IMG/VR virus record: IMGVR_UViG_3300036851_000224
Coordinates: 1-28,310 of that record
Source of the DNA: a virus
Length of the DNA stretch: 28,310 nucleotides
Reading direction: 5' to 3' (one strand)
Below the pieces are notes generated by a model. It saw only the letters and a program-made list of their open reading frames with translations. It was not told the DNA's origin and did no database searches. Position numbers and translations under genes: made by a program. Below are positions 1,362 through 27,026 of the stretch, piece by piece; positions within the stretch are counted from its first letter, which is position 1, and each line of letters begins with the position of its first letter.

Positions 1362-1588
1362 GACCCGGAGTCCCCGACGATCGGGTAAACGATCCAGCCG
1401 TCGCCCAGCGTGTCCCACTGAAGCCGGACCGTGGTGGCCCGGATGACGTCCTGAAGCTCATTCTTCTCGACCCGGACGGCAGGGCCTTCCCAGTACGCCC
1501 GGCCGTGGTAGTGCTCGACCTCGTAGAACCCCTCGGCCGACTCCATGTCGTTCACGAACTGGACCGCGTCCCTCGCGGTGTATTTCAT
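1358..1588 (-). CDS. Hypothetical protein (76 aa)
   Basis: ATG 1588 overlaps the stop of the upstream gene by 4 bp (1585-1588). The product begins MKYTARDAVQFVND and has aromatic-rich strands (GFYEVEHYHGRAYWEG, GDGWIVYPIVGD). Its first 14 codons lie in the left copy of a 47-bp inverted repeat whose second copy sits reversed at 2364-2410. The gene is coherent here, so this copy is probably the original. Function unknown. Confidence 0.75.
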   Translation of the reverse strand: MKYTARDAVQFVNDMESAEGFYEVEHYHGRAYWEGPAVRVEKNELQDVIRATTVRLQWDTLGDGWIVYPIVGDSGS

Positions 1589-1592
1589 CCGA
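1546..1592. repeat. 47-bp inverted repeat, left copy
   Basis: Bases 1546-1592 are the exact reverse complement of 2364-2410 by manual comparison. This copy spans the end of the 1585-1980 gene and the first codons of the 1358-1588 gene, including the shared ATGA, so both reading frames use it in the normal way. Identity ends abruptly at both edges. The two copies flank 771 bp. Confidence 0.93.
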
Positions 1593-1980
1593 ACACCACC
1601 TCTCCGAAGACGCCGAACTGCACGAGCATGTCGGCGATATCGCTGTCGATCTCTCCGGTACAGTCCTCGCGGGCCATACCGAGGAGCTTCGGGACGGGCC
1701 AGCCGCCCTTGTCGAGCGGTGCCTTGGCCATCACCTCGAACCCGCGTCGGAGCAGCTCAGGTGTGATCTCGCTCTCGATCTCGCCCTTGCCCACCGGGTT
1801 CTCATAGCGGATCGTGTAGAACACGAAGTCATCGGGAACTTCGATGACGTGGAGGCTCGGCTGCCACCGCTCCCACTCGTACTTCAGGATCTGCGACCAG
1901 TAGCCGATGCCGCCCTCGGCCGCGGTGATCGCGATGTCACCGCACTCGACGCCGGTCAGGTCGGCGATCTCGATCTTCAT
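1585..1980 (-). CDS. Hypothetical protein (131 aa)
   Basis: ATG 1980, with 4-bp overlaps at both ends. Begins MKIEIADLTGVECGDIAIT and contains a Trp-rich segment (IGYWSQILKYEWERWQPS, about residues 25-42) and a strand-rich centre (HVIEVPDDFVFYTIRYENPVG). The C-terminal half looks helical (ELLRRGFEVMAKAPLD, SDIADMLVQFGVFG). No known motif. Its last codons lie in the left inverted-repeat copy. Function unknown. Confidence 0.78.
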   Translation of the reverse strand: MKIEIADLTGVECGDIAITAAEGGIGYWSQILKYEWERWQPSLHVIEVPDDFVFYTIRYENPVGKGEIESEITPELLRRGFEVMAKAPLDKGGWPVPKLLGMAREDCTGEIDSDIADMLVQFGVFGEVVFG

Positions 1981-2865: not shown

Positions 2866-3041
2866 GGCCGCGTGACCATGGCCACCAGCTTGCGCGCGGC
2901 GTCTTGCCGGTTCGACCCGAGGGCCTCCGCGCGAAACGTGCCCTTCGTGGCCTTGGCCACGTAGCGCTGGCCGATGGGCTCGAAGCCCGTGAAGGTGAAG
3001 CCGCGAGCTTTCAGCATCGCGACCTCCATGTCGGTGAGCAT
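2862..3041 (-). CDS. Small basic hypothetical protein (59 aa)
   Basis: ATG 3041 sits behind a strong ribosome site (GGAAGGAGAG, about 8 nt upstream). The product is MLTDMEVAMLKARGFTFTGF followed by a basic half (YVAKATKGTFRAEALGSNRQ, then DAARKLVAMVTRP). The pattern of an N-terminal helix, GFTFTGFEPIGQRY strands and a C-terminal helix suggests a small mixed fold. First gene after an intergenic hairpin, so possibly the head of a transcription unit. Confidence 0.75.
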   Translation of the reverse strand: MLTDMEVAMLKARGFTFTGFEPIGQRYVAKATKGTFRAEALGSNRQDAARKLVAMVTRP

Positions 3042-13446: not shown

Positions 13447-13848
13447 ATGCGGGTCAACGTCTACGACCACGAGCTGACAGATCGGGTCGAGGTCGCCAAG
13501 GCGACGGCCGACAACACCGGCCAGAGCTTCTACGGCGTCCGGATCTACGTCGGTCCGGTCATCATGCACCAGCCGGGCGACGACGACAGCTCGGCGGTCA
13601 CGTGGTGGGTGCCGTGGTCCCAGCGAGGCGGCCATGACCTCCGGCTGCTGAAGTCGGCGTTCCAGAAGGCGCTGGCCTCGCTCGCCCAGATCGAGGCCGA
13701 GATCCGGCTCGACTCGGCAAACAAGGCTCGGGCCGAACTGGACGCCGAGATCGCGATGACGCCCTCGATCGATGCCCATGGCAACGAGCTGGCGCCGGAG
13801 ATCGTGGAGAACCCACGACGCCACGCCGACGGTTCGTGGCGCCCGTGA
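13447..13848 (+). CDS. Conserved phage hypothetical protein (133 aa)
   Basis: ATG 13447, one base after the previous stop region, with GAGG upstream. MRVNVYDHELTDRVEVAKAT followed by FYGVRIYVGPVIMHQPGDDD and SSAVTWWVPW matches a family recurring in actinobacterial and other phages (MR.NVY.EELT..VE...K......G.RFY......H.PGDDD.SAVTFW). The C-terminal part after about residue 85 is variable (a helical acidic stretch and a Pro/Arg tail). Function unknown. Confidence 0.85.
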   Translation: MRVNVYDHELTDRVEVAKATADNTGQSFYGVRIYVGPVIMHQPGDDDSSAVTWWVPWSQRGGHDLRLLKSAFQKALASLAQIEAEIRLDSANKARAELDAEIAMTPSIDAHGNELAPEIVENPRRHADGSWRP

Positions 13849-14471
13849 CCCGGTTCGAGGGCGTGCTCCTGAAGCCGCTCGACCAACAGGCTGACCGGGA
13901 CGGCTCGCTCATCGACCCGGACGGGGTGAAGTTCGATCCCGACGAGACCTACACGATCTGGCGGGAGTTCAACTACAGCGTCCCGGACGACGTGCTCGGT
14001 AGCGGCAAGATCCATCGAGCCGAAGATGGTTCGCTGATCGTCACTGGCGAGCTGAACGAGAAGGTCCCATTCCCGCGCGACGAGCCGGTTCCGTGGCGCC
14101 TCGCGATCCTCGCGATCGGGATCAAGACGGAAAGCATCATCCGCGGCCAACGAGTATCTGAGTGCGAGTTGTTTGGCATCGGGCTGACTGGCAACCATGT
14201 CGACCCGACCCAGCCACCCGTTGTCGTCAAGGGAACGATCAGGAAGGAAGTACAAATGATCGACAAGGCTGAGATCGAGAAGCGGTTCACCCATCATCGC
14301 CCCGATGCCGACGCGCAGGAGAAGCACGATTGGGCGCGAGCCGCCTTCAAGGCGTTCGCCGAGCAGCTCGCCGACTCCCTGCCCGACAGCCGCGAGAAGA
14401 GCCTCGCCTTCACGGCGCTCGAAGAGTCGTCGTTCTGGGCGCACGCGGCAGTCGCACGAGCGGGCCGGTAG
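13845..14471 (+). CDS. Two-domain protein: phage hypothetical domain plus Acb2-like cyclic-nucleotide sponge domain
   Basis: GTG 13845 gives a GTGA overlap with the upstream stop; GTG 13836 is also in frame. Residues 1-137 look like a phage hypothetical domain (DVLGSGKIHRAEDGSLIVTG; ILAIGIKTESI; SECELFGIGLTGNHVDP). Residues 138-208 carry the signature of the Acb2/Vs.4 hairpin family: IEKRFTHHRPD, WARAAFKAFAEQLADSLPDS, REKSLAFTALEESSFWAHAA, VAR. Acb2 binds cyclic di- and trinucleotides and blocks CBASS and related defences. The two parts are continuous in frame, but an internal ribosome site could make the Acb2 part separately. Confidence 0.8.
   Translation: MTRFEGVLLKPLDQQADRDGSLIDPDGVKFDPDETYTIWREFNYSVPDDVLGSGKIHRAEDGSLIVTGELNEKVPFPRDEPVPWRLAILAIGIKTESIIRGQRVSECELFGIGLTGNHVDPTQPPVVVKGTIRKEVQMIDKAEIEKRFTHHRPDADAQEKHDWARAAFKAFAEQLADSLPDSREKSLAFTALEESSFWAHAAVARAGR
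14241..14258 (+). promoter_or_regulatory. acb2: Internal ribosome site and ATG for the Acb2-like domain
   Basis: Within the 13845-14471 frame, aggaaggaag ends about 6 nt before ATG 14256, which would start a free 71-aa protein (MIDKAEIEKRFTHHRPDADA ... AVARAGR, ending at 14471). Known Acb2 proteins are of similar size, so separate synthesis is plausible. Confidence 0.6.
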
Positions 14472-14481
14472 GAACGTTGGT

Positions 14482-14730
14482 GTGCCGCGCTACGTCCGTG
14501 ACCACGACTCGGTCGGGGACGGTGAGACCTGCACCCGGTGCGGCTCGCTTCGTATCCGTCACATCAAGCAGTCCAGCGGTCACGCGCCCGTTCCGGGAGC
14601 AGATGGTCGATGCGACCACGAACTCGGTGACGGGCGCTGCGGCCGTCTCGTTCGGTTGATCCGTGCCGAGGCGCGCCGCTCCTACTGGATCCACACCGGC
14701 AAGCGAAGAGTGCCATTGCGCCGAGGGTGA
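14482..14730 (+). CDS. Small zinc-binding basic protein (82 aa), GTG start
   Basis: GTG 14482 follows AGGAACG by about 7 nt. Residues 18-58 hold TCTRCGSLRIRHIKQSSGHA then RCDHELGDGRCGRLVR: two Cys pairs separated by a basic loop with His residues, a typical four-Cys ribbon. The C-terminus is basic (AEARRSYWIHTGKRRVPLRR). Nucleic-acid binding is likely from charge and fold type, but unproven. Confidence 0.68.
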   Translation: MPRYVRDHDSVGDGETCTRCGSLRIRHIKQSSGHAPVPGADGRCDHELGDGRCGRLVRLIRAEARRSYWIHTGKRRVPLRRG

Positions 14731-14953
14731 GAATGCTCGCCTCGTCGAATATCGAGGCAAGTGCCTGATCGTCTGCGGCACGATGATCCCGGCGAAACAC
14801 TTCGTCTGCCGCCCGTGTGCTCTCGGGAACCACACGGGCGGCCCCTGTCGACAGTATGTTCCCGATTACCCGCGCAACCTCATCAAGACGTGCAGAGAGT
14901 GCGGCTTCGACGGTGCGCTCCACGAGGTGGGCAGCAATGGCCAGCGGAACTAG
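14663..14953 (+). CDS. Cys-rich zinc-binding protein (96 aa), start uncertain
   Basis: The only ATG/GTG/TTG before the conserved-looking part is GTG 14663, overlapping the previous gene by 68 bp. Cys groups: ECHCAEG, KCLIVCG, FVCRPCALGNHTGGPCRQ and KTCRECGFDG, ten Cys in 96 residues, enough for two zinc sites. The first 15 residues look like overlap sequence, so translation may start later at a non-standard codon. Function unknown. Confidence 0.6.
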   Translation: MPRRAAPTGSTPASEECHCAEGENARLVEYRGKCLIVCGTMIPAKHFVCRPCALGNHTGGPCRQYVPDYPRNLIKTCRECGFDGALHEVGSNGQRN

Positions 14954-16658: not shown

Positions 16659-16728
16659 CGGGCCGGTCGTGCTGGGCGTCTGGATGCCCCAGAAGCAGGC
16701 CGAGCCGAAGGCCAAGAAGGGTGCCTGA
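16546..16728 (+). CDS. Second Phd/YefM-like small protein (60 aa)
   Basis: ATG 16546 follows GAGGA by about 5 nt; ATG 16534 in the same frame lacks a ribosome site. PILGVRAFRDQFPTLTEPTR then VIRATSRNGSGPVVLGVWMP has the strand-helix-strand-strand layout of Phd/YefM antitoxins, with V-R-x-F-R-x-x-F-x-x-L-T matching the first helix. The positively charged tail (KQAEPKAKKGA) is short. It resembles the 12823 protein at the same positions. No toxin partner is visible. Confidence 0.66.
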   Translation: MPTPIKNMPILGVRAFRDQFPTLTEPTRVIRATSRNGSGPVVLGVWMPQKQAEPKAKKGA

Positions 16729-17278
16729 TGCGACCAGCGAGGTCGAGGAGTGGGCTCGCGGCGATTGGATGCAGCTCTTCAGTGGTCGGCGGTTCTACCC
16801 GCTTGATCCGCAGCCGGTCGACATCGCCCCAGAGGACATCGCGCACGCTCTCTCGCTCCTCTGCCGATATGGCGGTCATCTCGACCGCTTCTATTCAGTG
16901 GCCGAACACAGCGTCCTGATGTCGCAGGCGGTGGCGCCCGAGCACGCTCTGGTGGCCCTGCTCCATGACGCGACCGAGGCATACGTCGTCGACGTCCCTC
17001 GGCCGCTGAAGCGATACCTGCCCGATTACAAGGCGATCGAGGCGTCGGTCTGGAACGCTATCTGCCTCCGGTTTCATCTCGCAGGCGATCTCCCGCCAGA
17101 GGTCAAAGAGGCTGACACCCGGATCCTTCTGACTGAGCGCGACGTGCTGATGTCGCGAACCATGTACTCGTGGTCGATCGAAGACATGGAGCCGCTGCCC
17201 GTCACGATCCAAGGCTGGGCTCCGACCGATGCGGAGGAGAAGTTCTTCGCTCGACTGGAGGTGCTGTTCCATGAGTGA
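16721..17278 (+). CDS. HD-domain phosphohydrolase, YfbR-like (185 aa)
   Basis: GTG 16721 overlaps the previous stop by 8 bp. WMQLFSGRRFYPLDPQPVDI then APEDIAHALSLLCRYGGHLD and FYSVAEHSVLMSQ match a phage and bacterial HD family. The metal residues are visible: His63 (AEHS), His82-Asp83 (LLHDATEAY) and Asp132 (KEADTRIL). These enzymes cleave phosphate from deoxynucleoside monophosphates or related substrates in the cytoplasm. In phages they are thought to adjust nucleotide pools, and here the enzyme could work with the nearby QueD-like protein. Confidence 0.88.
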   Translation: MPDATSEVEEWARGDWMQLFSGRRFYPLDPQPVDIAPEDIAHALSLLCRYGGHLDRFYSVAEHSVLMSQAVAPEHALVALLHDATEAYVVDVPRPLKRYLPDYKAIEASVWNAICLRFHLAGDLPPEVKEADTRILLTERDVLMSRTMYSWSIEDMEPLPVTIQGWAPTDAEEKFFARLEVLFHE

Positions 17279-17453
17279 GAGGCTAGTCATGGCCCGGGTC
17301 GTCGGCAGGACCGACAACGGGTTGCGGGTCCGCCCGATGGGAGCCCCGGATAGCACGCCGCACTCGATGTGCCCCAAGCTGAGCTGGTGCCAACCAGCCG
17401 AAGTCGCCCTCGCGGCGCTCCAGAAGGACCAGCCACTACCTCGGCGCGGCTGA
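17271..17453 (+). CDS. Small hypothetical protein (60 aa)
   Basis: ATG 17271 overlaps the HD gene by 8 bp and its stop shares one base with the next ATG (TGATG at 17451-17455). MSERLVMARVVGRTDNGLRV then APDSTPHSMCPKLSWCQPAE. The two Cys and His in HSMCPKLSWC could be a partial metal site. Function unknown; translation looks coupled to the ATPase gene after it. Confidence 0.62.
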   Translation: MSERLVMARVVGRTDNGLRVRPMGAPDSTPHSMCPKLSWCQPAEVALAALQKDQPLPRRG

Positions 17454-19201
17454 TGGCCAGCAAGATGCTGGAGATCGGAGCGGGGCTGACCCTTCCGCTC
17501 TCGTGGATGACCATGGCGTCGGTCGTCTACGGCAACCGGGGGACCGGCAAGTCGACATTCGGACGGGTCATCGCCGAAGAGATCGTGAACCACGGCCAGC
17601 GGTTCTGCGCTCTGGACATCGCGGGCGCCTTCTGGGGCTTGAAGGCGTCGGCCTCCGGGACTGATACGGGCCTTCCCATCGTCATCTTCGGAGGCGAGCA
17701 CGCCGACGTCCCGCTGGAGACCGGCGCTGGGACCAAGGTCGCCGAAGTCGTGGCCTCGATCAGCCAGTCCGTGATCCTCGACTTCGAGCTGATGTCGAAG
17801 GGCAAGCAGATCGCCTTCCTCGGGGAGTTCCTCGAACGGCTCTATCACATCAACCGCGACCCGCTGCTGCTCCTCATGGACGAGGCCCAGCGGTACGCGC
17901 CCCAGAAGCCAATGAGCGTCGAGGCGAACAAGACCCTCGGCGCGACCGAGGACATCGTGAAGCTCGGCCGGAAGCACGGCCTTGGCCCGGTCGTCTTCAC
18001 TCAGCGCGGCTCCGGGCTGAACAAGGAGGTCAGCGAGCTGGCCGACGTTCTGGTCGCGTTCCGTTCACCGGGCGTCCTCGACCAGAAGCGCATTAAGGAA
18101 TGGCTGGAGGCGAATGCCACCGCCGAGCAGCAGAAAGAGGTCATGGCCAAGATCTCATCGCTGCCGACCGGCACGGCGATCGTCGCCTCGAACCACCCTG
18201 ATCTGCCGCTCTTCGGGGCGTTTGCCATCCGGCGGCCGCGTACGTTCGACAGCTCGGCAACCCCGAAGCCCGGTGAGAGGCGGGTCGAGCCGAAGGTACT
18301 CGCGCAGGCCGATATCGAGGTCCTGAAGGTCGAGATGGCCGAAGCTATCGAACGGGCCAAGGCCGAAGACCCGAAGGAGCTGCGGAAGGAGGTCGCCCGC
18401 CTGAAGGGTCAGATTGCCGATCTCATCGCGGATCCTATGAAGGTCGAATACGAGACGATTGTCGAGAAGCCGGTGCCGTTCCTGACCGACGAGGCCCGCG
18501 CACAGATCGACGAGCTGACGGCCACGCTCCAGTCGATCTCGGAGCAGCTCGACACGGAGTCCGTGCGCCAGCCAATTGCATTGGATCGCCTCCATACAGA
18601 GCCTACGAAGGCTGTCATCCACGAATGGAAGCCAGACTTGCGACCAGCGCGCATCGAAGATATGGGCCGGGCCGACCCGGAGAAGCTGCGTCAGGCTGGC
18701 ATCGCGGTCGCGGTAGCTGCGCGTTCGCCGTCTGACGGCGAGATGAAGCTCGGCAAGCCGGAGCTGGCCATCCTCGCGACGCTGGCTGTCAATCCCGAGG
18801 GCCTGATCCAGAAGCGGCTGTCGACCCTGACCGGCTACTCGATCAAGTCGTCGGGGTTCGGGATCGCTCTGGCAACCCTTCGACGAGAGGAGCTGGTCGA
18901 GAAGGGGCCGCTCATCAAGATCACCGACAAGGGACTCGGTTATGTGCCGGACGGTGTCGAGCTGCCGCCACCGCCCGGACCCGAGCTGGTCGACTACTGG
19001 CTCCGGAAGCTGAAGACGACCGAACAGAGGATCCTGCGAGTGATGATCGACGCACACCCGGAGCAGCTGACCATCGACGAGATAGCTGAGCGAGCGGGCT
19101 ATTCCCCAAAGTCATCGGGTCTCGGGATCGCGTTGGGGAAACTCAGGAGCACGAAGCTCATCAACGGCTTCCGCGTTAGCGAGGATGTTGTCGGCAGTTA
19201 G
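17453..19201 (+). CDS. HerA/FtsK-like ATPase with two C-terminal winged helices (582 aa)
   Basis: ATG 17453 (TGATG overlap). Walker A is GNRGTGKST (residues 27-35) and Walker B LLLLMDEAQ (138-146), in the layout of HerA/FtsK P-loop ATPases that pump or unwind DNA as hexamers. Residues about 310-400 are a charged coiled coil (KVEMAEAIERAKAEDPKELR). Two similar winged-helix domains end the protein, one with LTGYSIKSSGFGIALATLRR and one with AGYSPKSSGLGIALGKLRS. This architecture recurs in phage and bacterial ATPases of unknown role. No NurA-type nuclease adjoins it. Confidence 0.85.
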   Translation: MASKMLEIGAGLTLPLSWMTMASVVYGNRGTGKSTFGRVIAEEIVNHGQRFCALDIAGAFWGLKASASGTDTGLPIVIFGGEHADVPLETGAGTKVAEVVASISQSVILDFELMSKGKQIAFLGEFLERLYHINRDPLLLLMDEAQRYAPQKPMSVEANKTLGATEDIVKLGRKHGLGPVVFTQRGSGLNKEVSELADVLVAFRSPGVLDQKRIKEWLEANATAEQQKEVMAKISSLPTGTAIVASNHPDLPLFGAFAIRRPRTFDSSATPKPGERRVEPKVLAQADIEVLKVEMAEAIERAKAEDPKELRKEVARLKGQIADLIADPMKVEYETIVEKPVPFLTDEARAQIDELTATLQSISEQLDTESVRQPIALDRLHTEPTKAVIHEWKPDLRPARIEDMGRADPEKLRQAGIAVAVAARSPSDGEMKLGKPELAILATLAVNPEGLIQKRLSTLTGYSIKSSGFGIALATLRREELVEKGPLIKITDKGLGYVPDGVELPPPPGPELVDYWLRKLKTTEQRILRVMIDAHPEQLTIDEIAERAGYSPKSSGLGIALGKLRSTKLINGFRVSEDVVGS

Positions 19202-19240: not shown

Positions 19241-19340
19241 AATCGCACAGAGAACGCTGGTCGTGCGTTTCGTGGGCTTCGCACGCATCGGCATCCCGAA
19301 CGGACGGGTCGGCCTCAGTGGCTGGCCCGTCCCTTCTTTC
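19241..19340 (+). ncRNA. Candidate small RNA or attenuator leader before queD-like gene
   Basis: About 100 nt between the promoter and the ribosome site of the next gene, with no ORF. Hairpin A can pair cgtgcg with cgcacg (around 19262-19267 and 19280-19285). Hairpin B (19302-19314 with 19320-19332) has 13 pairs, two of them G-U, a 5-nt loop (tcagt) and a following CTTCTTTC, a good intrinsic terminator. An alternative pairing, tccct with agggat, would cover the ribosome site. This suits a leader that can be switched. Confidence 0.55.
19302..19340 (+). terminator. Intrinsic terminator-like hairpin
   Basis: The 13-bp stem with a tcagt loop is followed by CCTTCTTTC. It lies 10-20 nt before the ATG of the queD-like gene, downstream of the candidate promoter. 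Confidence 0.6.
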
Positions 19341-19350
19341 GGGTGGAGGG

Positions 19351-19710
19351 ATGATCGTGCTGGAGTTCACGGGGACCGCGGCGGCGGAGTTCAGCGCGTC
19401 GCACGTCGTGCCGGGCCACACTCGATGCGGGAGGCTCCATGGGCATCGCTGGCGGATCGTCGTCTCGATGGAGGCCGGTCAGGACCCGACGACTGGCGAG
19501 CTACACAGGGTCCCTCAGCTGGCGAACGCGGTCGAGGCGATCTGCGCCGAGGCCGACCGAGAGCACGTCAACGATATGTTCCCCGCCAGCTCCCCGACCC
19601 CAGCCGGGGTCGCCCTCTCCGTCCGCGAGAGACTGATCCTCGACTTCCCGAAGATCACCAAGGTGCAGGTCTGGGCCGATGACGTCAGCGTCACACTCTC
19701 CAGCGGCTGA
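19351..19710 (+). CDS. queD: QueD-like 6-carboxy-tetrahydropterin synthase homologue (119 aa)
   Basis: ATG 19351 follows GGAGGG. The zinc ligands are His18 (SASH), His30 and His32 (RLHGHRW); Cys26 (TRCGRLHGH) sits where QueD's catalytic Cys is. DREHVNDMF and SPTPAGVA match the next conserved blocks. QueD makes 6-carboxy-tetrahydropterin on the path to 7-deazaguanine, used by some phages to modify DNA against restriction. Two differences: the Asp-His pair reads Glu71-His72 with a shortened loop, and the C-terminal Glu that holds the pterin is replaced (VWADDVSV). The substrate may therefore differ. No queC, queE, folE or dpdA is in this window. Confidence 0.8.
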   Translation: MIVLEFTGTAAAEFSASHVVPGHTRCGRLHGHRWRIVVSMEAGQDPTTGELHRVPQLANAVEAICAEADREHVNDMFPASSPTPAGVALSVRERLILDFPKITKVQVWADDVSVTLSSG

Positions 19711-20558: not shown

Positions 20559-21109
20559 GCCGGACGAAGCACGACTACCCGAAGCTCCGCCTCGAATACA
20601 TCCAGTCCGAGATCAGCATCCGGGAGCTGTGCAAGCGCAACGACATCAAGAACTGGTCGACCGTCAACGCCATGAAGGTGAAGGAAGACTGGGACAAGGC
20701 CCGCGAGGAGTTTCGGGAGAGGGTCGCCGAGCGTGAGATCGGGGCGCTCGTCGACGCTCGAATGAGGACGACGGCAGAGATCCATCAGGAGCTGCTGGTC
20801 GCCATTCGTCACGCCGTGCGGCGGTTCATCAAGGACCTCGCCGCGGACAAGGAAGAGGGTCAGACGGTCTCGGCCCGCGACATCATGGGCATGATCGACA
20901 AGTTCCTGCTGCTCACGGGTCAGGCAACCTCGCGCTCGGAGAGTAAGAACCTTGATCTCCACGCCATCACGGGCTTCGACGACGTCCTCCGAGGAGCCCC
21001 GCCCGACCTACTTCGAGAACTTGCAGAAGTGGCTCGCTCGAACGGAGCTGGAGCGAAGCCAGTGGGATCAGGTCCACTCATCGTCCTTGAGGGAACTCGC
21101 ACGGCGTAA
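20555..21109 (+). CDS. terS: Terminase small subunit-like protein (184 aa)
   Basis: ATG 20555, ATGA overlap. The N-terminal domain (YPKLRLEYIQSEISIRELCK, then RNDIKNWSTVNAMKVKEDWD, KAREEFRERVAE) is the helix-turn-helix DNA-recognition fold usual for small terminase subunits, followed by a long helical oligomerisation region (EIHQELLVAIRHAVRRFIKD) and RDIMGMIDKFLLLTG. It lies directly before the large terminase gene, with which it overlaps by 158 bp. The small subunit recognises the packaging site and controls the motor. Confidence 0.82.
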   Translation: MSRTKHDYPKLRLEYIQSEISIRELCKRNDIKNWSTVNAMKVKEDWDKAREEFRERVAEREIGALVDARMRTTAEIHQELLVAIRHAVRRFIKDLAADKEEGQTVSARDIMGMIDKFLLLTGQATSRSESKNLDLHAITGFDDVLRGAPPDLLRELAEVARSNGAGAKPVGSGPLIVLEGTRTA

Positions 21110-22469
21110 GGTCGTCGACGCGATCTTCGCGTACGGGGAGTACGTCTTCGGCTACCGGGCAGCCGCGCACCACCGCGAGATGATCGAGAAGATGCTCGAC
21201 GCAGTGGCCAAGGCTGGAACTGCGCTGGCTCGGAACCTCATCATCGAGGAGCCCCGCGGCCACGCCAAGACGACGTGGGGCGACACGATCTTCCTGTGCT
21301 GGCTCATCAGCCAGTTCCCGCACCTCCGGATCGGGCTCCTGTCCAAGAAGGACGAGCTGGCCTACGACTTCAGCAAAGCCATCCGCTGGACCTTCGAGAA
21401 CAACCCGCGGCACCACGAGATCTTCGGGCGGAACGTCTCGGCGGCGAAGTGGACGGACAAGGAGTGGTATCACTCGGACAGCCCGTGGCAGGGCCAGAAG
21501 GACATGACCCTGTTCGCCGCGGGGACGGGCTCGGCGATCGTGTCCAAGCGCTTCGACATCATCCTCGCCGACGACATCCTCGACGCCGAGAACACCAAGA
21601 CGCCGGAGCAGCGCGCGGCGGTCGAGGAGTGGTGGCAGAAGACGGTCCGGCCGTGCCTGACCCCGAACGGCATCATCATCATGCTCGGGACCCGATGGGC
21701 GGTCGAGGATCTCTACGAGAAGCTCAGCGACGACGACGAGGACGGGGAAGAGTCCGATTTCGAGCTGATGCTTCGGCAGGCCATCATCGAGGACCCGGTC
21801 ACCAAGGAGGTCACCGCGCTCTGGCCCGAGGTCTGGTCGCTGGAGCGACTGGCCAAGGAGCTGAAGAACATGGGGTCGGCGTGGTTCAGCTGCGCCTACC
21901 AGAACGACGTCTCGGGTCTGGCCAAGGGCAACGTCTTCCGGAAGGACGACTTCGACTACTTCAAGCGGCTCGACCCCGAGAAGAGCTACACGATCCGGAT
22001 GGGGATGGACCTAGCCTCCTCGGAGAAGCAGACGGCCGACTTCACGGCCCGCTGCACGACGGCCGAGGATGAGGACGGCAACTTCTACGTACTCGCGGTC
22101 TATCGGGACCGTCGAGAAACCGATCACGCCGACTTCGTCGTCGACGGCTGGATGGCCCACCAGCACATGGCGCTCGTCATCTGCGAGAACAACGCCTTCC
22201 AGTCGACGCTCATCAAGGAGGTCATGCGGGACTACCCGCAGATCCCGATCGAGGGCAAGAAGACCGACGTCGACAAGGTGACGCGCGCCAGAGCGGTCGC
22301 CGCCAAGTACGAGGCCCACAAGGTCTTCCACCACATCTCGCTGAAGGGCGGCGAGTTCGAGCAGGAACTGCTGACGTTCCCGAAGGGGCACGACGACATG
22401 ATCGACGCCCTCGGGTTCTCGATGGATCTCGGAGGCGACGAGTTCAGCTTCACGTCAGCTCGGAGGTGA
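20952..22469 (+). CDS. terL: Terminase large subunit (505 aa), TTG start
   Basis: TTG 20952 has GGAGAG 8 nt upstream; no ATG or GTG occurs in frame before residue 77, and coding-type sequence begins by residue 15 (EPRPTYFENLQKWLARTELE). Walker A variant EPRGHAKTT (100-108), Walker B IILADD (203-208), coupling motif IIIMLGTRW (241-249). RNase H-like nuclease acidic residues: Asp353 (GMDLASS), Glu in VICENNAF, and GHDDMIDALG near the end. The protein pumps DNA into the capsid and cuts it. All motifs are present, so it should be active. Confidence 0.95.
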   Translation: MISTPSRASTTSSEEPRPTYFENLQKWLARTELERSQWDQVHSSSLRELARRKVVDAIFAYGEYVFGYRAAAHHREMIEKMLDAVAKAGTALARNLIIEEPRGHAKTTWGDTIFLCWLISQFPHLRIGLLSKKDELAYDFSKAIRWTFENNPRHHEIFGRNVSAAKWTDKEWYHSDSPWQGQKDMTLFAAGTGSAIVSKRFDIILADDILDAENTKTPEQRAAVEEWWQKTVRPCLTPNGIIIMLGTRWAVEDLYEKLSDDDEDGEESDFELMLRQAIIEDPVTKEVTALWPEVWSLERLAKELKNMGSAWFSCAYQNDVSGLAKGNVFRKDDFDYFKRLDPEKSYTIRMGMDLASSEKQTADFTARCTTAEDEDGNFYVLAVYRDRRETDHADFVVDGWMAHQHMALVICENNAFQSTLIKEVMRDYPQIPIEGKKTDVDKVTRARAVAAKYEAHKVFHHISLKGGEFEQELLTFPKGHDDMIDALGFSMDLGGDEFSFTSARR

Positions 22470-22638: not shown

Positions 22639-22842
22639 GTGGGGCTGAAGAGGCTGAAGTTCAGGGACGGGCGGCGGTGGGTGCCCGAGCACGTGGCCGC
22701 GATGATGGTGGGGCTCAAGACCCACACGATGACGCACCAGCAGGCCCTCGACGCTGCCAATGAGCGGCTGACGAAAGACCACATCGAGCGAGCGTTCGAC
22801 GGGATCGTCTCGGCTCACTTTCGCGATCACGGAGGCGGTTGA
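22639..22842 (+). CDS. Small hypothetical protein (67 aa), GTG start
   Basis: GTG 22639 with GAGGT 6 nt upstream. Basic N-terminus (MGLKRLKFRDGRRWVPEHVA) and helices (MTHQQALDAANERLTKDHIE). Its last base overlaps the portal ATG (TGATG). Not recognised; the position suggests a head-assembly accessory protein. Confidence 0.68.
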   Translation: MGLKRLKFRDGRRWVPEHVAAMMVGLKTHTMTHQQALDAANERLTKDHIERAFDGIVSAHFRDHGGG

Positions 22843-24434
22843 TGGGGATCGTCGTTGACCTCGCCCGCGCCGCGGTCGCGGCATCCGGCCGCAAGGCCAA
22901 CGAGAAGGCCGTACCCGCCAGTGCCTCCATGGCGCCGACGGAGTCCGGTCGGCAGGGCAAGCCGAACGTCCGGCTCTTCCGCCATTGGGCGGAGCATTCA
23001 GAGCTGGTTCGCGGCGCCATCGACATCAGGCGTGGGCAGGTTGCGGTCGCGGAGTGGGACATTCTGCCCGTCGACGGCGATCTGAGCTACTCACAGTCCC
23101 TAAAAGCTCAGATCGTTGACCTGTTCGACCGGCCGAACCCGACCCGTGCCAGCTTCCGCTCGTTCACAGAGCCAGTGGTCGAAGATGTCCTCGTGCTCGA
23201 TGCTGGCTCGATCGAGAAGGTCCGCAATCTGCGGGGACAGATCGCCCAGCTGTGGGCGGTCGACGGCGGCGAGGTCCGGGTTGCCAAGTATTGGGACGGC
23301 GAAGAGGACGAGGCTCGGTACTTCTGGTATCCGGACGGGCAGGTTCGAGCGCGCTGGACGAACAGTGAGTTCACTTACATCATGTCCCGCCCGGCGTCGT
23401 ACCGGGTCGTCGGCCTCTCTACCATGGAGGTCCTGAAGGCGACGATCGACCGCGAGCTGGGTGCCGACGCCTACAACTCGCGGCAGGTGACCTCGGCCGC
23501 GCCGGACGGTCTGCTCGATCTCGGCGAGGGCGTTCGACCAGATCAGGTCGAGAAGTTCAAGGCGTACTGGCTGGCGGAGATCGCCGGGCGCGGCGCCATG
23601 GCCATCCTCGGCGGATCGCGGAACGCCAAGTTCCACCACTTCCGGATGTCGAACCGGGACATGCAGTTCGCCGAGTGGCAGAACTACCTGCTCCGCAAGA
23701 CGGCTCTCGTCTTTGGGCTCGCCGCTCAGGACCTGAACGCGGTCACCGACGTGAACCGGGCCTCGGCCTCGGTCTTTCAGGAGAACACCGAGGATCGTGG
23801 CCTGCGGCCGCTCCTCGGGCTCGTGGCCGACTACTACACCCGCGAGATCGTCTGGGATGAGGGCTTCGGCGGGGCCGAGAACAACCTCCGCTTCGCGTTC
23901 ACCAAGCTGAACCTGAAGGAGACGCTCGACAATGCCAAGGTCGAGGCAACCCAGACCGGCAACATGCCGACGCGCAGCGTCGATGAGCTGCGGAAGAAGG
24001 CTGGGCTGGAGCCGTGGGGACCGCCATTCGATCTGCCAATGGTCGTCACACCGACAGGCGTCGTCATCCTCTCGGATGTCCCGACGGCACGCGAGGTCAT
24101 GCAGTCGAAGGAGAAGCCCGAGCCGAAGCCCCCGGCGCCGACAAAGGCGGGCGACATTCATGTGGCTGCGACGGACCTGACGCCTATCCGGGATCTCTTC
24201 GAGCGGTTCTCGGGCGATCAGGAGAAGCTCATCGAGGCGATCGCGCTGCGAGATACCCCGCCCGCCGAGGTCCACATCGACGCGGGGGCCGTTCAGGTCC
24301 ATCTCGATGCTCCGGTGACCGTCGAGGCGGCGCGCAAGCCGGACGTCACTCGCGAGACGGAGTTCAAGTTGGACGGAAGCGGCCGCATCGTCGGCAAGAG
24401 GGAGGTCGAGACCAGTGCCGATTTCGAACGCTAA
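22842..24434 (+). CDS. Phage portal protein (530 aa)
   Basis: ATG 22842 (TGATG overlap). Assigned from position after terL and from features of the HK97/PBSX-type portal: an N-terminal entry with NVRLFRHWAEHSELVRGAID, the wing domain (AQLWAVDGGEVRVAKYWDGE), a stem and clip region (DGLLDLGEGVRPDQVEKFKA, YWLAEIAGRG) and the stretch LLRKTALVFGLAAQDLNAVT, typical of portals before the crown helix. The last 120 residues are an acidic Pro/Lys linker and strand-rich tail (VHIDAGAVQVHLDAPVTVEA; LDGSGRIVGKREVE), which may bind scaffold. It forms the dodecameric DNA gate of the head. Confidence 0.88.
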   Translation: MGIVVDLARAAVAASGRKANEKAVPASASMAPTESGRQGKPNVRLFRHWAEHSELVRGAIDIRRGQVAVAEWDILPVDGDLSYSQSLKAQIVDLFDRPNPTRASFRSFTEPVVEDVLVLDAGSIEKVRNLRGQIAQLWAVDGGEVRVAKYWDGEEDEARYFWYPDGQVRARWTNSEFTYIMSRPASYRVVGLSTMEVLKATIDRELGADAYNSRQVTSAAPDGLLDLGEGVRPDQVEKFKAYWLAEIAGRGAMAILGGSRNAKFHHFRMSNRDMQFAEWQNYLLRKTALVFGLAAQDLNAVTDVNRASASVFQENTEDRGLRPLLGLVADYYTREIVWDEGFGGAENNLRFAFTKLNLKETLDNAKVEATQTGNMPTRSVDELRKKAGLEPWGPPFDLPMVVTPTGVVILSDVPTAREVMQSKEKPEPKPPAPTKAGDIHVAATDLTPIRDLFERFSGDQEKLIEAIALRDTPPAEVHIDAGAVQVHLDAPVTVEAARKPDVTRETEFKLDGSGRIVGKREVETSADFER

Positions 24435-25928: not shown

Positions 25929-27026
25929 ATGGCTGACAGGGTCTCGACCGAACACGTCGAAGTCTTCGTTGTCCCCGACACCCAGAAGGCCCGCGTCAGC
26001 GCCGAGCACGTCGAAGTCTTCGTCGTTCCAGACACCCAGAAGGCGCAGATCAGCGCCGAACACGTCGAAGTCTTCGTTGTCCCCGACACCCAGAAGGCGC
26101 AGATCTCGGCCGAATACGTCGAGGTCTTCATCGCAGGGGCGACGACCGGAGAGCCCGTTTCCTCCGACCTCGCCTTCGATGCGTCGATCATCAACCTCGG
26201 GCAAGCATCGCTCACCTTCGACTACGAGATCCTCCCGGAAGGTGTAGATCAGGCCGGGGCGGATCTTGGTATCGACTACGCGATCGGAGTCGCTGGTGGT
26301 GTCCATAAGGACCTGACGTTCAGCGCCCGGGTCACGAAGGCGACTAAGCTCAAGCAGCGCGGCAAGGACCTGCGGATCGGCTGGCAGGTTCAGGCCCTGA
26401 CGGTCATCGGACGCGACTACCAGATCAACTGGATCATCGAGCCGCCGCTCGTCGGCGCCGACCTCGACATCAATGCCCCGGTCGACATCAACACGGTCGC
26501 CGGGGCCGACCTGCCGTTCACCTTCGAGGTCGAGAACCCGCGACCTCGGGTGGGGCTCTCATTCGATGCCACGATCAGAGCGCTGGTCAATGGCGACCTG
26601 CCGTTCGACGCCGGAATGCGGGCACCGGCTGACGGCGATCTGATGATCGACGCGCCGATCGAGGGCGCCACGGTCTCCAGCGATCTCACGATCGACTTCG
26701 AGATCCAAGCGCAACGGCGTCGGGGTACAGCGTTCATCGTCGGGCCGCGGACCGAGGAGCCGAAGAAGCCGAGGCAGCGCGGGAAGTATCCGCGGCAACG
26801 ACAGGCGGATCTCGCGTTCGACGCGCCGATCAGGCGGTTGGCCAACTCGGACTTCATGGTCAGCTCGCCGATCCTTGCGCTGGTGGCGGCCTCGGTGACT
26901 CTCGGCTCAAGGATCGCTCGCTCGGCCGGATCCGATCTCGGGATCGACTCGGTCCGCTACGACTTCTACGACTGGAACCGCGACGTCCTGCTCGCGGAGA
27001 TTGACCCCGACCTCGTTGGAGGGTGA
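25929..27026 (+). CDS. Repeat-rich virion protein (365 aa)
   Basis: ATG 25929. Residues 5-69 are tandem 18-residue repeats with the core SAEHVEVFVVPDTQKA, resembling repeats in phage proteins encoded after the portal in several environmental phages. Residues 75-365 contain a second, looser repeat of the form (S/G/A)DLxFDAxI (for example SDLAFDASI, GDLPFDAGM, SDLTIDFEI), with a basic insertion (RRRGTAFIVGPRTEEPKKPR then QRGKYPRQRQ) near residue 270. The alternation suggests a beta-stacked, fibrous or surface protein. No catalytic motif. Confidence 0.78.
   Translation: MADRVSTEHVEVFVVPDTQKARVSAEHVEVFVVPDTQKAQISAEHVEVFVVPDTQKAQISAEYVEVFIAGATTGEPVSSDLAFDASIINLGQASLTFDYEILPEGVDQAGADLGIDYAIGVAGGVHKDLTFSARVTKATKLKQRGKDLRIGWQVQALTVIGRDYQINWIIEPPLVGADLDINAPVDINTVAGADLPFTFEVENPRPRVGLSFDATIRALVNGDLPFDAGMRAPADGDLMIDAPIEGATVSSDLTIDFEIQAQRRRGTAFIVGPRTEEPKKPRQRGKYPRQRQADLAFDAPIRRLANSDFMVSSPILALVAASVTLGSRIARSAGSDLGIDSVRYDFYDWNRDVLLAEIDPDLVGG
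25941..26135 (+). repeat. 54-bp tandem repeats (18-residue unit)
   Basis: Three full units (25941-25994, 25995-26048, 26049-26102) and a diverged fourth (26103-26135). Units 1-3 share nearly all codons, with differences mostly at third positions or at a single Thr/Ala and Arg/Gln change. Confidence 0.9.

What the first reader, a model, noticed from the sequence alone, without database searches (positions are those of the whole stretch)
13845..14471. Acb2-like anti-CBASS sponge joined in frame to a phage hypothetical domain, with an internal start
Seen: residues 138-208 carry the REKSLAFTALEE...FWAHAAVAR and HHRPD motifs of the Acb2/Vs.4 hairpin family, in frame with a 137-residue N-terminal domain. 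An internal ATG (14256) has its own ribosome site. Known: Acb2 binds cyclic nucleotides and blocks CBASS-type defences. Inference: this locus may make both a fused and a free sponge, and the N-terminal domain could tune ligand, location or assembly.
Basis: partly seen in the sequence, partly recalled or inferred. Interest (0 to 1): 0.85.

Follow-up and report, generated by a model that had tools for sequence, protein, structure and literature searches.

The report
Phage sponge protein fused in frame
A phage gene carries a standard Acb2 "sponge" (a small protein known to soak up bacterial alarm nucleotides) joined without a stop codon to an unrelated phage domain, with a strong internal start that should also release the sponge on its own; the sponge is ordinary, the joint is unusual.

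Summary
13845-14471 is one open frame of 208 codons. Residues 150-205 are an Acb2/Tad1 hairpin domain (PF24729, 54.7 bits, cut-off 27). The internal ATG at 14256 has a strong ribosome site (-10.6 kcal/mol) and aligns with the native start of stand-alone Acb2 genes. The N-terminal domain (NTD) belongs to a very rare family with only two other copies found. In L007 it stands alone, with its own stop. In L001/L006, a syntenic relative, it continues in frame into a different, unrelated 77-residue protein, again across a Shine-Dalgarno-coding linker and an internal ATG. So the NTD gene has a variable slot at its 3' end, here filled by Acb2. No stop separates the two parts, so ribosomes that read the NTD should make the fusion; free sponge needs the internal start, which is likely but not shown. 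Among 64 other distinct Acb2 loci none has a comparable fusion; one has a plausible 46-residue in-frame leader. The T4 Tyr8 position, needed for cyclic-dinucleotide binding, is His here. The NTD fold and function remain unknown: structure prediction failed, and a capsid-protease relation was tested and not supported. Verdict: new variant of a known kind, moderate interest.

The parts
13845..14471 (+). Composite gene: NTD plus Acb2 sponge, 208 aa from GTG 13845 (GTGA overlap with the upstream gene)
   Evidence: Open frame without a stop; GTGA/ATGA overlap seen in all three NTD loci
13845..14228 (+). N-terminal domain, residues 1 to about 128, rare family (GVLLKPLDQQxDRD ... HxDPTQP); stands alone in L007
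   Evidence: 57% and 51% identity to L001 and L007; codon-position pattern of a coding frame, third-position changes most frequent
14229..14255 (+). Linker KGTIRKEVQ, whose codons AGG AAG GAA form the Shine-Dalgarno site for the internal start; counterpart in L001 is GTTRRDKA (CGG AGG GAC)
14256..14471 (+). Acb2-family sponge, 71 aa, with its own ATG
   Evidence: PF24729 58.1 bits; start column aligned with 11 stand-alone homologues; hairpin model pLDDT above 90 in most of it
14292..14294 (+). His codon (CTD residue 13, full-length residue 150) at the position of T4 Acb2 Tyr8
   Evidence: Y8A of T4 Acb2 disrupts cyclic dinucleotide binding (PMC12657218)
13447..13848 (+). Upstream gene overlapping the NTD start by 4 nt (phrog_20753-like, unknown function)
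14481..14730 (+). Probable small CxxC-type protein, the other gene in the variable slot; no counterpart in L001/L006
   Evidence: Open frame, no match from L006 in this stretch
14663..14953 (+). Cysteine-rich gene that bounds the variable slot on the right; conserved in L001/L006
   Evidence: 55% identity over 85 aa to the L006 frame

Best explanation
It is a composite phage gene. A rare phage domain (NTD) with a variable 3' slot has received an Acb2-type sponge in frame, without a stop between them, while the Shine-Dalgarno site and start codon of the downstream gene are kept inside the joint. Ribosomes that enter at GTG 13845, probably by coupling to the upstream gene through the GTGA overlap, make the 208-residue fusion. 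Ribosomes that enter at ATG 14256 make the free 71-residue sponge, probably the main product because its site is much stronger. The sponge part is expected to oligomerise and sequester cyclic oligonucleotide signals of CBASS-like defences, perhaps in mixed oligomers that carry some NTDs. Shown from sequence: family membership, in-frame joint, conserved internal start signal, different partners at the slot. Inferred: translation of both forms, sponge activity, mixed oligomers. The Tyr-to-His difference suggests an altered or weakened dinucleotide pocket; the trinucleotide site may be intact.
For: Acb2 profile hits far above cut-off. Internal ATG aligned with native starts of stand-alone Acb2s with -10.6 kcal/mol Shine-Dalgarno pairing. 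The relative L001/L006 is collinear with window 12.2-21.6 kb and has the same NTD read in frame into a different 77-aa protein, with Shine-Dalgarno pairing of -10.4 at its internal ATG. L007 has the NTD alone, ending where the linker begins. The linker DNA is similar between the two fusions.
Against: No expression data. Only three NTD sequences exist in the collections searched, so slot exchange rests on one pair of related phages plus one outgroup. The NTD start has weak ribosome pairing (-4.5), so the fusion may be minor. The window is a viral contig of 28,310 bases; a lost stop cannot be checked against reads, though the similar in-frame joint in L001 argues against an error.
Confidence: 0.6

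Rival explanations
1. Neutral run-on: two ordinary adjacent phage genes whose separating stop was lost. The free sponge does the work; the NTD-Acb2 fusion is a tolerated by-product without a function of its own.
For: NTD and Acb2 each exist as separate proteins; the strong start sits where a separate gene would start; one third of lost stops would be in frame by chance; another Acb2 (L011/L048) also has a plausible in-frame 46-aa leader.
Against: The stop-less joint occurs with two different partners in two diverged phages (about 56% NTD identity), which needs two losses or retention of one stop-less ancestor.
Confidence: 0.3
2. Functional fusion: the NTD tunes localisation, ligand range or assembly of the sponge.
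For: No stop, so in this phage the NTD can be made only as a fusion unless it is cleaved; NTD shows the pattern of a coding frame.
Against: NTD alone in L007 and with another partner in L001; no NTD fold or function could be assigned; the known Acb2 sponges work alone.
Confidence: 0.2
3. A Tad1-like sponge: an N-terminal beta domain plus the shared hairpin forming one ligand site, instead of a fused Acb2.
For: Pfam groups Acb2 and Tad1 hairpins in one family; the NTD model is strand-rich but of low confidence; Tad1 chains appear among structural matches.
Against: The C-terminal part has the Acb2 N-terminal helix and an own start shared with stand-alone Acb2s; the NTD matches no Tad1 chain by sequence; Tad1 chains are about 123-138 residues in all, about as long as the NTD alone; the NTD occurs without a hairpin in L007.
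Confidence: 0.04
4. Assembly or sequencing error removed a stop codon or frameshifted two genes together.
For: Contig from a virus collection; reads not available.
Against: L001, a different contig, has the same kind of stop-less joint with a different partner; local gene order is conserved.
Confidence: 0.06

Closest known systems
Acb2 (T4 Vs.4, PaMx41 gp24; PF24729)
   Different: Joined in frame to a domain and linker of 137 residues; His instead of the Tyr8 equivalent; Ala at the aligned position of T4 Phe82
Acb2 homolog 43 (PDB 9ptq)
   Same: Closest solved relative by sequence; also lacks the Tyr (Thr in the alignment)
   Different: 76 residues, stand-alone chain
Tad1 (7uav, 8kbb)
   Same: Same Pfam hairpin, preceded by another domain
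   Different: N-terminal beta domain of Tad1 is shorter, and no sequence similarity to the NTD was found
Nested genes with in-frame internal starts (lambda C/Nu3, Cas8/Cas11; from general knowledge)
   Same: One frame, two starts, a long and a short product that share the C-terminal part
   Different: Here the short part is a counter-defence protein and the joint lies at a slot with different partners in different phages

Membership tests
Acb2 (PF24729) | Profile score above the curated cut-off | tested here: met
   54.7 and 58.1 bits against cut-off 27; T4 Vs.4 scores 71.4
Acb2 (PF24729) | Short N-terminal helix plus helical hairpin | tested here: met
   Model helices 141-149, 155-178, 183-206, pLDDT 88-97 over 151-200; prediction only
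Acb2 (PF24729) | Tyr at the dinucleotide-binding position (functional, not defining: 47 of 56 have it) | tested here: not met
   His at CTD residue 13; solved Acb2 homolog 43 also lacks Tyr in the alignment
Acb2 (PF24729) | Hexamer that binds cyclic di- and trinucleotides | not testable with these tools
   Needs purified protein
Tad1 | N-terminal Tad1 beta domain before the hairpin | tested here: inconclusive
   No sequence match of the NTD to any solved Tad1 chain; NTD fold not predicted with confidence
HK97-type prohead protease (Peptidase_S78) | Profile similarity of the NTD | tested here: not met
   No PF04586 match in the window; hhalign score 14.2 against up to 19.2 for column shuffles
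Nested gene with an internal in-frame start | Internal start codon with ribosome site at the domain boundary, conserved in relatives | tested here: met
   Window -10.6 and L001 -10.4 kcal/mol at equivalent sites; starts aligned with stand-alone homologues
Nested gene with an internal in-frame start | Both products made | not testable with these tools
   Needs ribosome profiling or proteomics

The most novel reading that the evidence does not exclude
The NTD is a carrier domain whose 3' slot takes up small effector or counter-defence proteins in frame, each with its own internal start, so that the phage makes a free and a carrier-bound form of every cargo; here the cargo is an Acb2 sponge with a retuned pocket (His for Tyr) that assembles into mixed NTD-bearing oligomers.
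Probability: 0.15. Interest if true: 0.7.

Novelty: new variant of a known kind. Interest (0 to 1): 0.4.

Why it matters
Acb2 sponges have been described as small stand-alone proteins, as far as the papers and the loci sampled here show. An in-frame fusion with a conserved internal start would give a phage two forms of one counter-defence protein from one frame. The slot after the NTD offers a way to look for new small counter-defence proteins: the 77-residue partner in L001/L006 occupies the same place as Acb2 and is a candidate by position. The His-for-Tyr difference is a simple test of how ligand range is set.

Tried and rejected
NTD as a degenerate prohead protease: it looks similar by eye to HK97 gp4, but PF04586 does not match and the profile comparison is no better than shuffles; rejected. 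NTD fold: prediction with three sequences gave mean pLDDT 36.7 and under 60 in most of the NTD of the full model, so fold searches say nothing about it. Foldseek gave no match with E below 0.7 for the whole model; in the second look Tad1 reached Z 4.7, not above unrelated helical rows. More NTD relatives: none in annotated phages, plasmids or GTDB genomes, two in IMG/VR; L120 is a chance match. The 77-aa partner of L001: no family and no relative apart from itself. PADLOC and NCBIfam: no hits. Long in-frame stretches upstream of other Acb2s are mostly shadow frames, judged by G+C per codon position.

Full report
What is in the sequence. The frame from GTG 13845 to the stop ending at 14471 is open and encodes 208 residues. 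The window is a virus record of 28,310 bases with a terminase large subunit at 20952-22469 and a portal gene at 22839-24434. The best match of the terminase among annotated phages is 27% identical; the most frequent matches are in phages of Microbacterium and Streptomyces.

The sponge. Residues 150-205 match PF24729, Acb2/Tad1 hairpin, at 54.7 bits (cut-off 27), and phrog_1454 at 8e-23. All 12 members of a small family alignment match the same Pfam model, and so does T4 Vs.4. The closest solved structure by profile is 9ptq, Acb2 homolog 43, at 1.3e-8. The model of the full protein has helices 141-149, 155-178 and 183-206, with pLDDT of about 88-97 over residues 151-200. [quoted passage not shown] Family membership by sequence is therefore settled; sponge activity is inferred from relatives.

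The internal start. ATG 14256 aligns with the native starts of 11 stand-alone homologues. The upstream sequence AGGAAGGAAGTACAA pairs with the anti-Shine-Dalgarno at -10.6 kcal/mol; sampled stand-alone Acb2 starts lie between -8.7 and -11.9, and the GTG 13845 start at -4.5. The three NTD genes all start in a 4-base overlap with the stop of the gene before (GTGA or ATGA), which suggests translational coupling.

The N-terminal domain. Only two relatives were found in the collections searched. L007 carries the NTD alone, 127 residues with its own stop. L001/L006 carries the NTD (56-57% identity) read in frame into an unrelated 77-residue protein with its own ATG at 3020 and a Shine-Dalgarno pairing of -10.4. 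L006 is collinear with the window from about 12.2 to 21.6 kb, so these are related phages that differ, among other places, at the slot between the NTD and the cysteine-rich gene at 14663-14953. In the window the slot holds Acb2 and probably a further small gene at 14481-14730. Differences between NTDs are most frequent at third codon positions (65 against 45 and 35 for window and L001), as expected of a protein-coding frame.

How unusual the joint is. No annotated phage or plasmid match covers 80% of the fusion, and the annotated matches inspected are separate genes of about 69-91 residues. Among 64 distinct Acb2 loci from IMG/VR, 15 have 40 or more stop-free codons upstream in frame. By G+C per codon position most of these look like shadow frames of other genes or non-coding DNA; only L048/L011 has a plausible 46-residue in-frame leader. 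The sample is of the closest relatives (best 80 of 113), and the G+C test is rough.

Ligand site. T4 Acb2 Tyr8, whose change to Ala disrupts dinucleotide binding (PMC12657218), aligns with His at CTD residue 13. Of 56 aligned sequences 47 have Tyr, 4 Phe, 2 His, 2 Asn. An altered dinucleotide pocket is a reasonable inference, not a result.

Mechanism. Because no stop lies between the parts, any ribosome that translates the NTD should continue into Acb2, so the NTD is not expected as a separate product here without cleavage. The internal site should give free sponge, probably in excess. Mixed oligomers are possible but untested. Whether the fusion has a role or is a tolerated by-product cannot be decided from sequence; the presence of the same kind of joint with another partner mildly favours more than chance, but with n = 2 this is weak.

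Literature. Acb2 is described as a small hexameric sponge for cyclic di- and trinucleotides, present in many tailed phages (PMC12043709), and is annotated in actinophages (PMC13348362). No fused Acb2 was found in the papers searched; many papers are not in that library.

Verdict. Observation confirmed; interpretation partly supported; a new variant of a known kind; interest 0.4.

Noticed in passing
L001:3020-3253 (same DNA in L006, L021): The 77-aa protein MNLVRLGHYFNPGNDSC... occupies the slot that holds Acb2 in the window; no family or relative found. Candidate counter-defence protein by position only.
   Followed up: partly
L011:1854-2213 (L048): A 46-residue leader (GYCWCQPKIAYEDPATGDRVYLHHHERN) is in frame with an Acb2 that has its own start with Shine-Dalgarno pairing of -9.8 kcal/mol; weak similarity to phrog_2864 (E 0.02).
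   Followed up: partly
window 1545-1593 and 2363-2411: An exact inverted repeat of 47 bases or a little more that encodes the same start (MKYTARDAVQFVND) on opposite strands.
   Followed up: no
window 25929-26200: Virion-region frame with tandem repeats of about 17 residues (VSAEHVEVFVVPDTQKA).
   Followed up: no
window 19318-19710, 16721-17278, 17369-19201: QueD-like synthase, a weak YfbR-like (HD nucleotidase) match below cut-off, and a 610-aa P-loop ATPase with a partial terminase-family match between the Acb2 region and the terminase genes.
   Followed up: no
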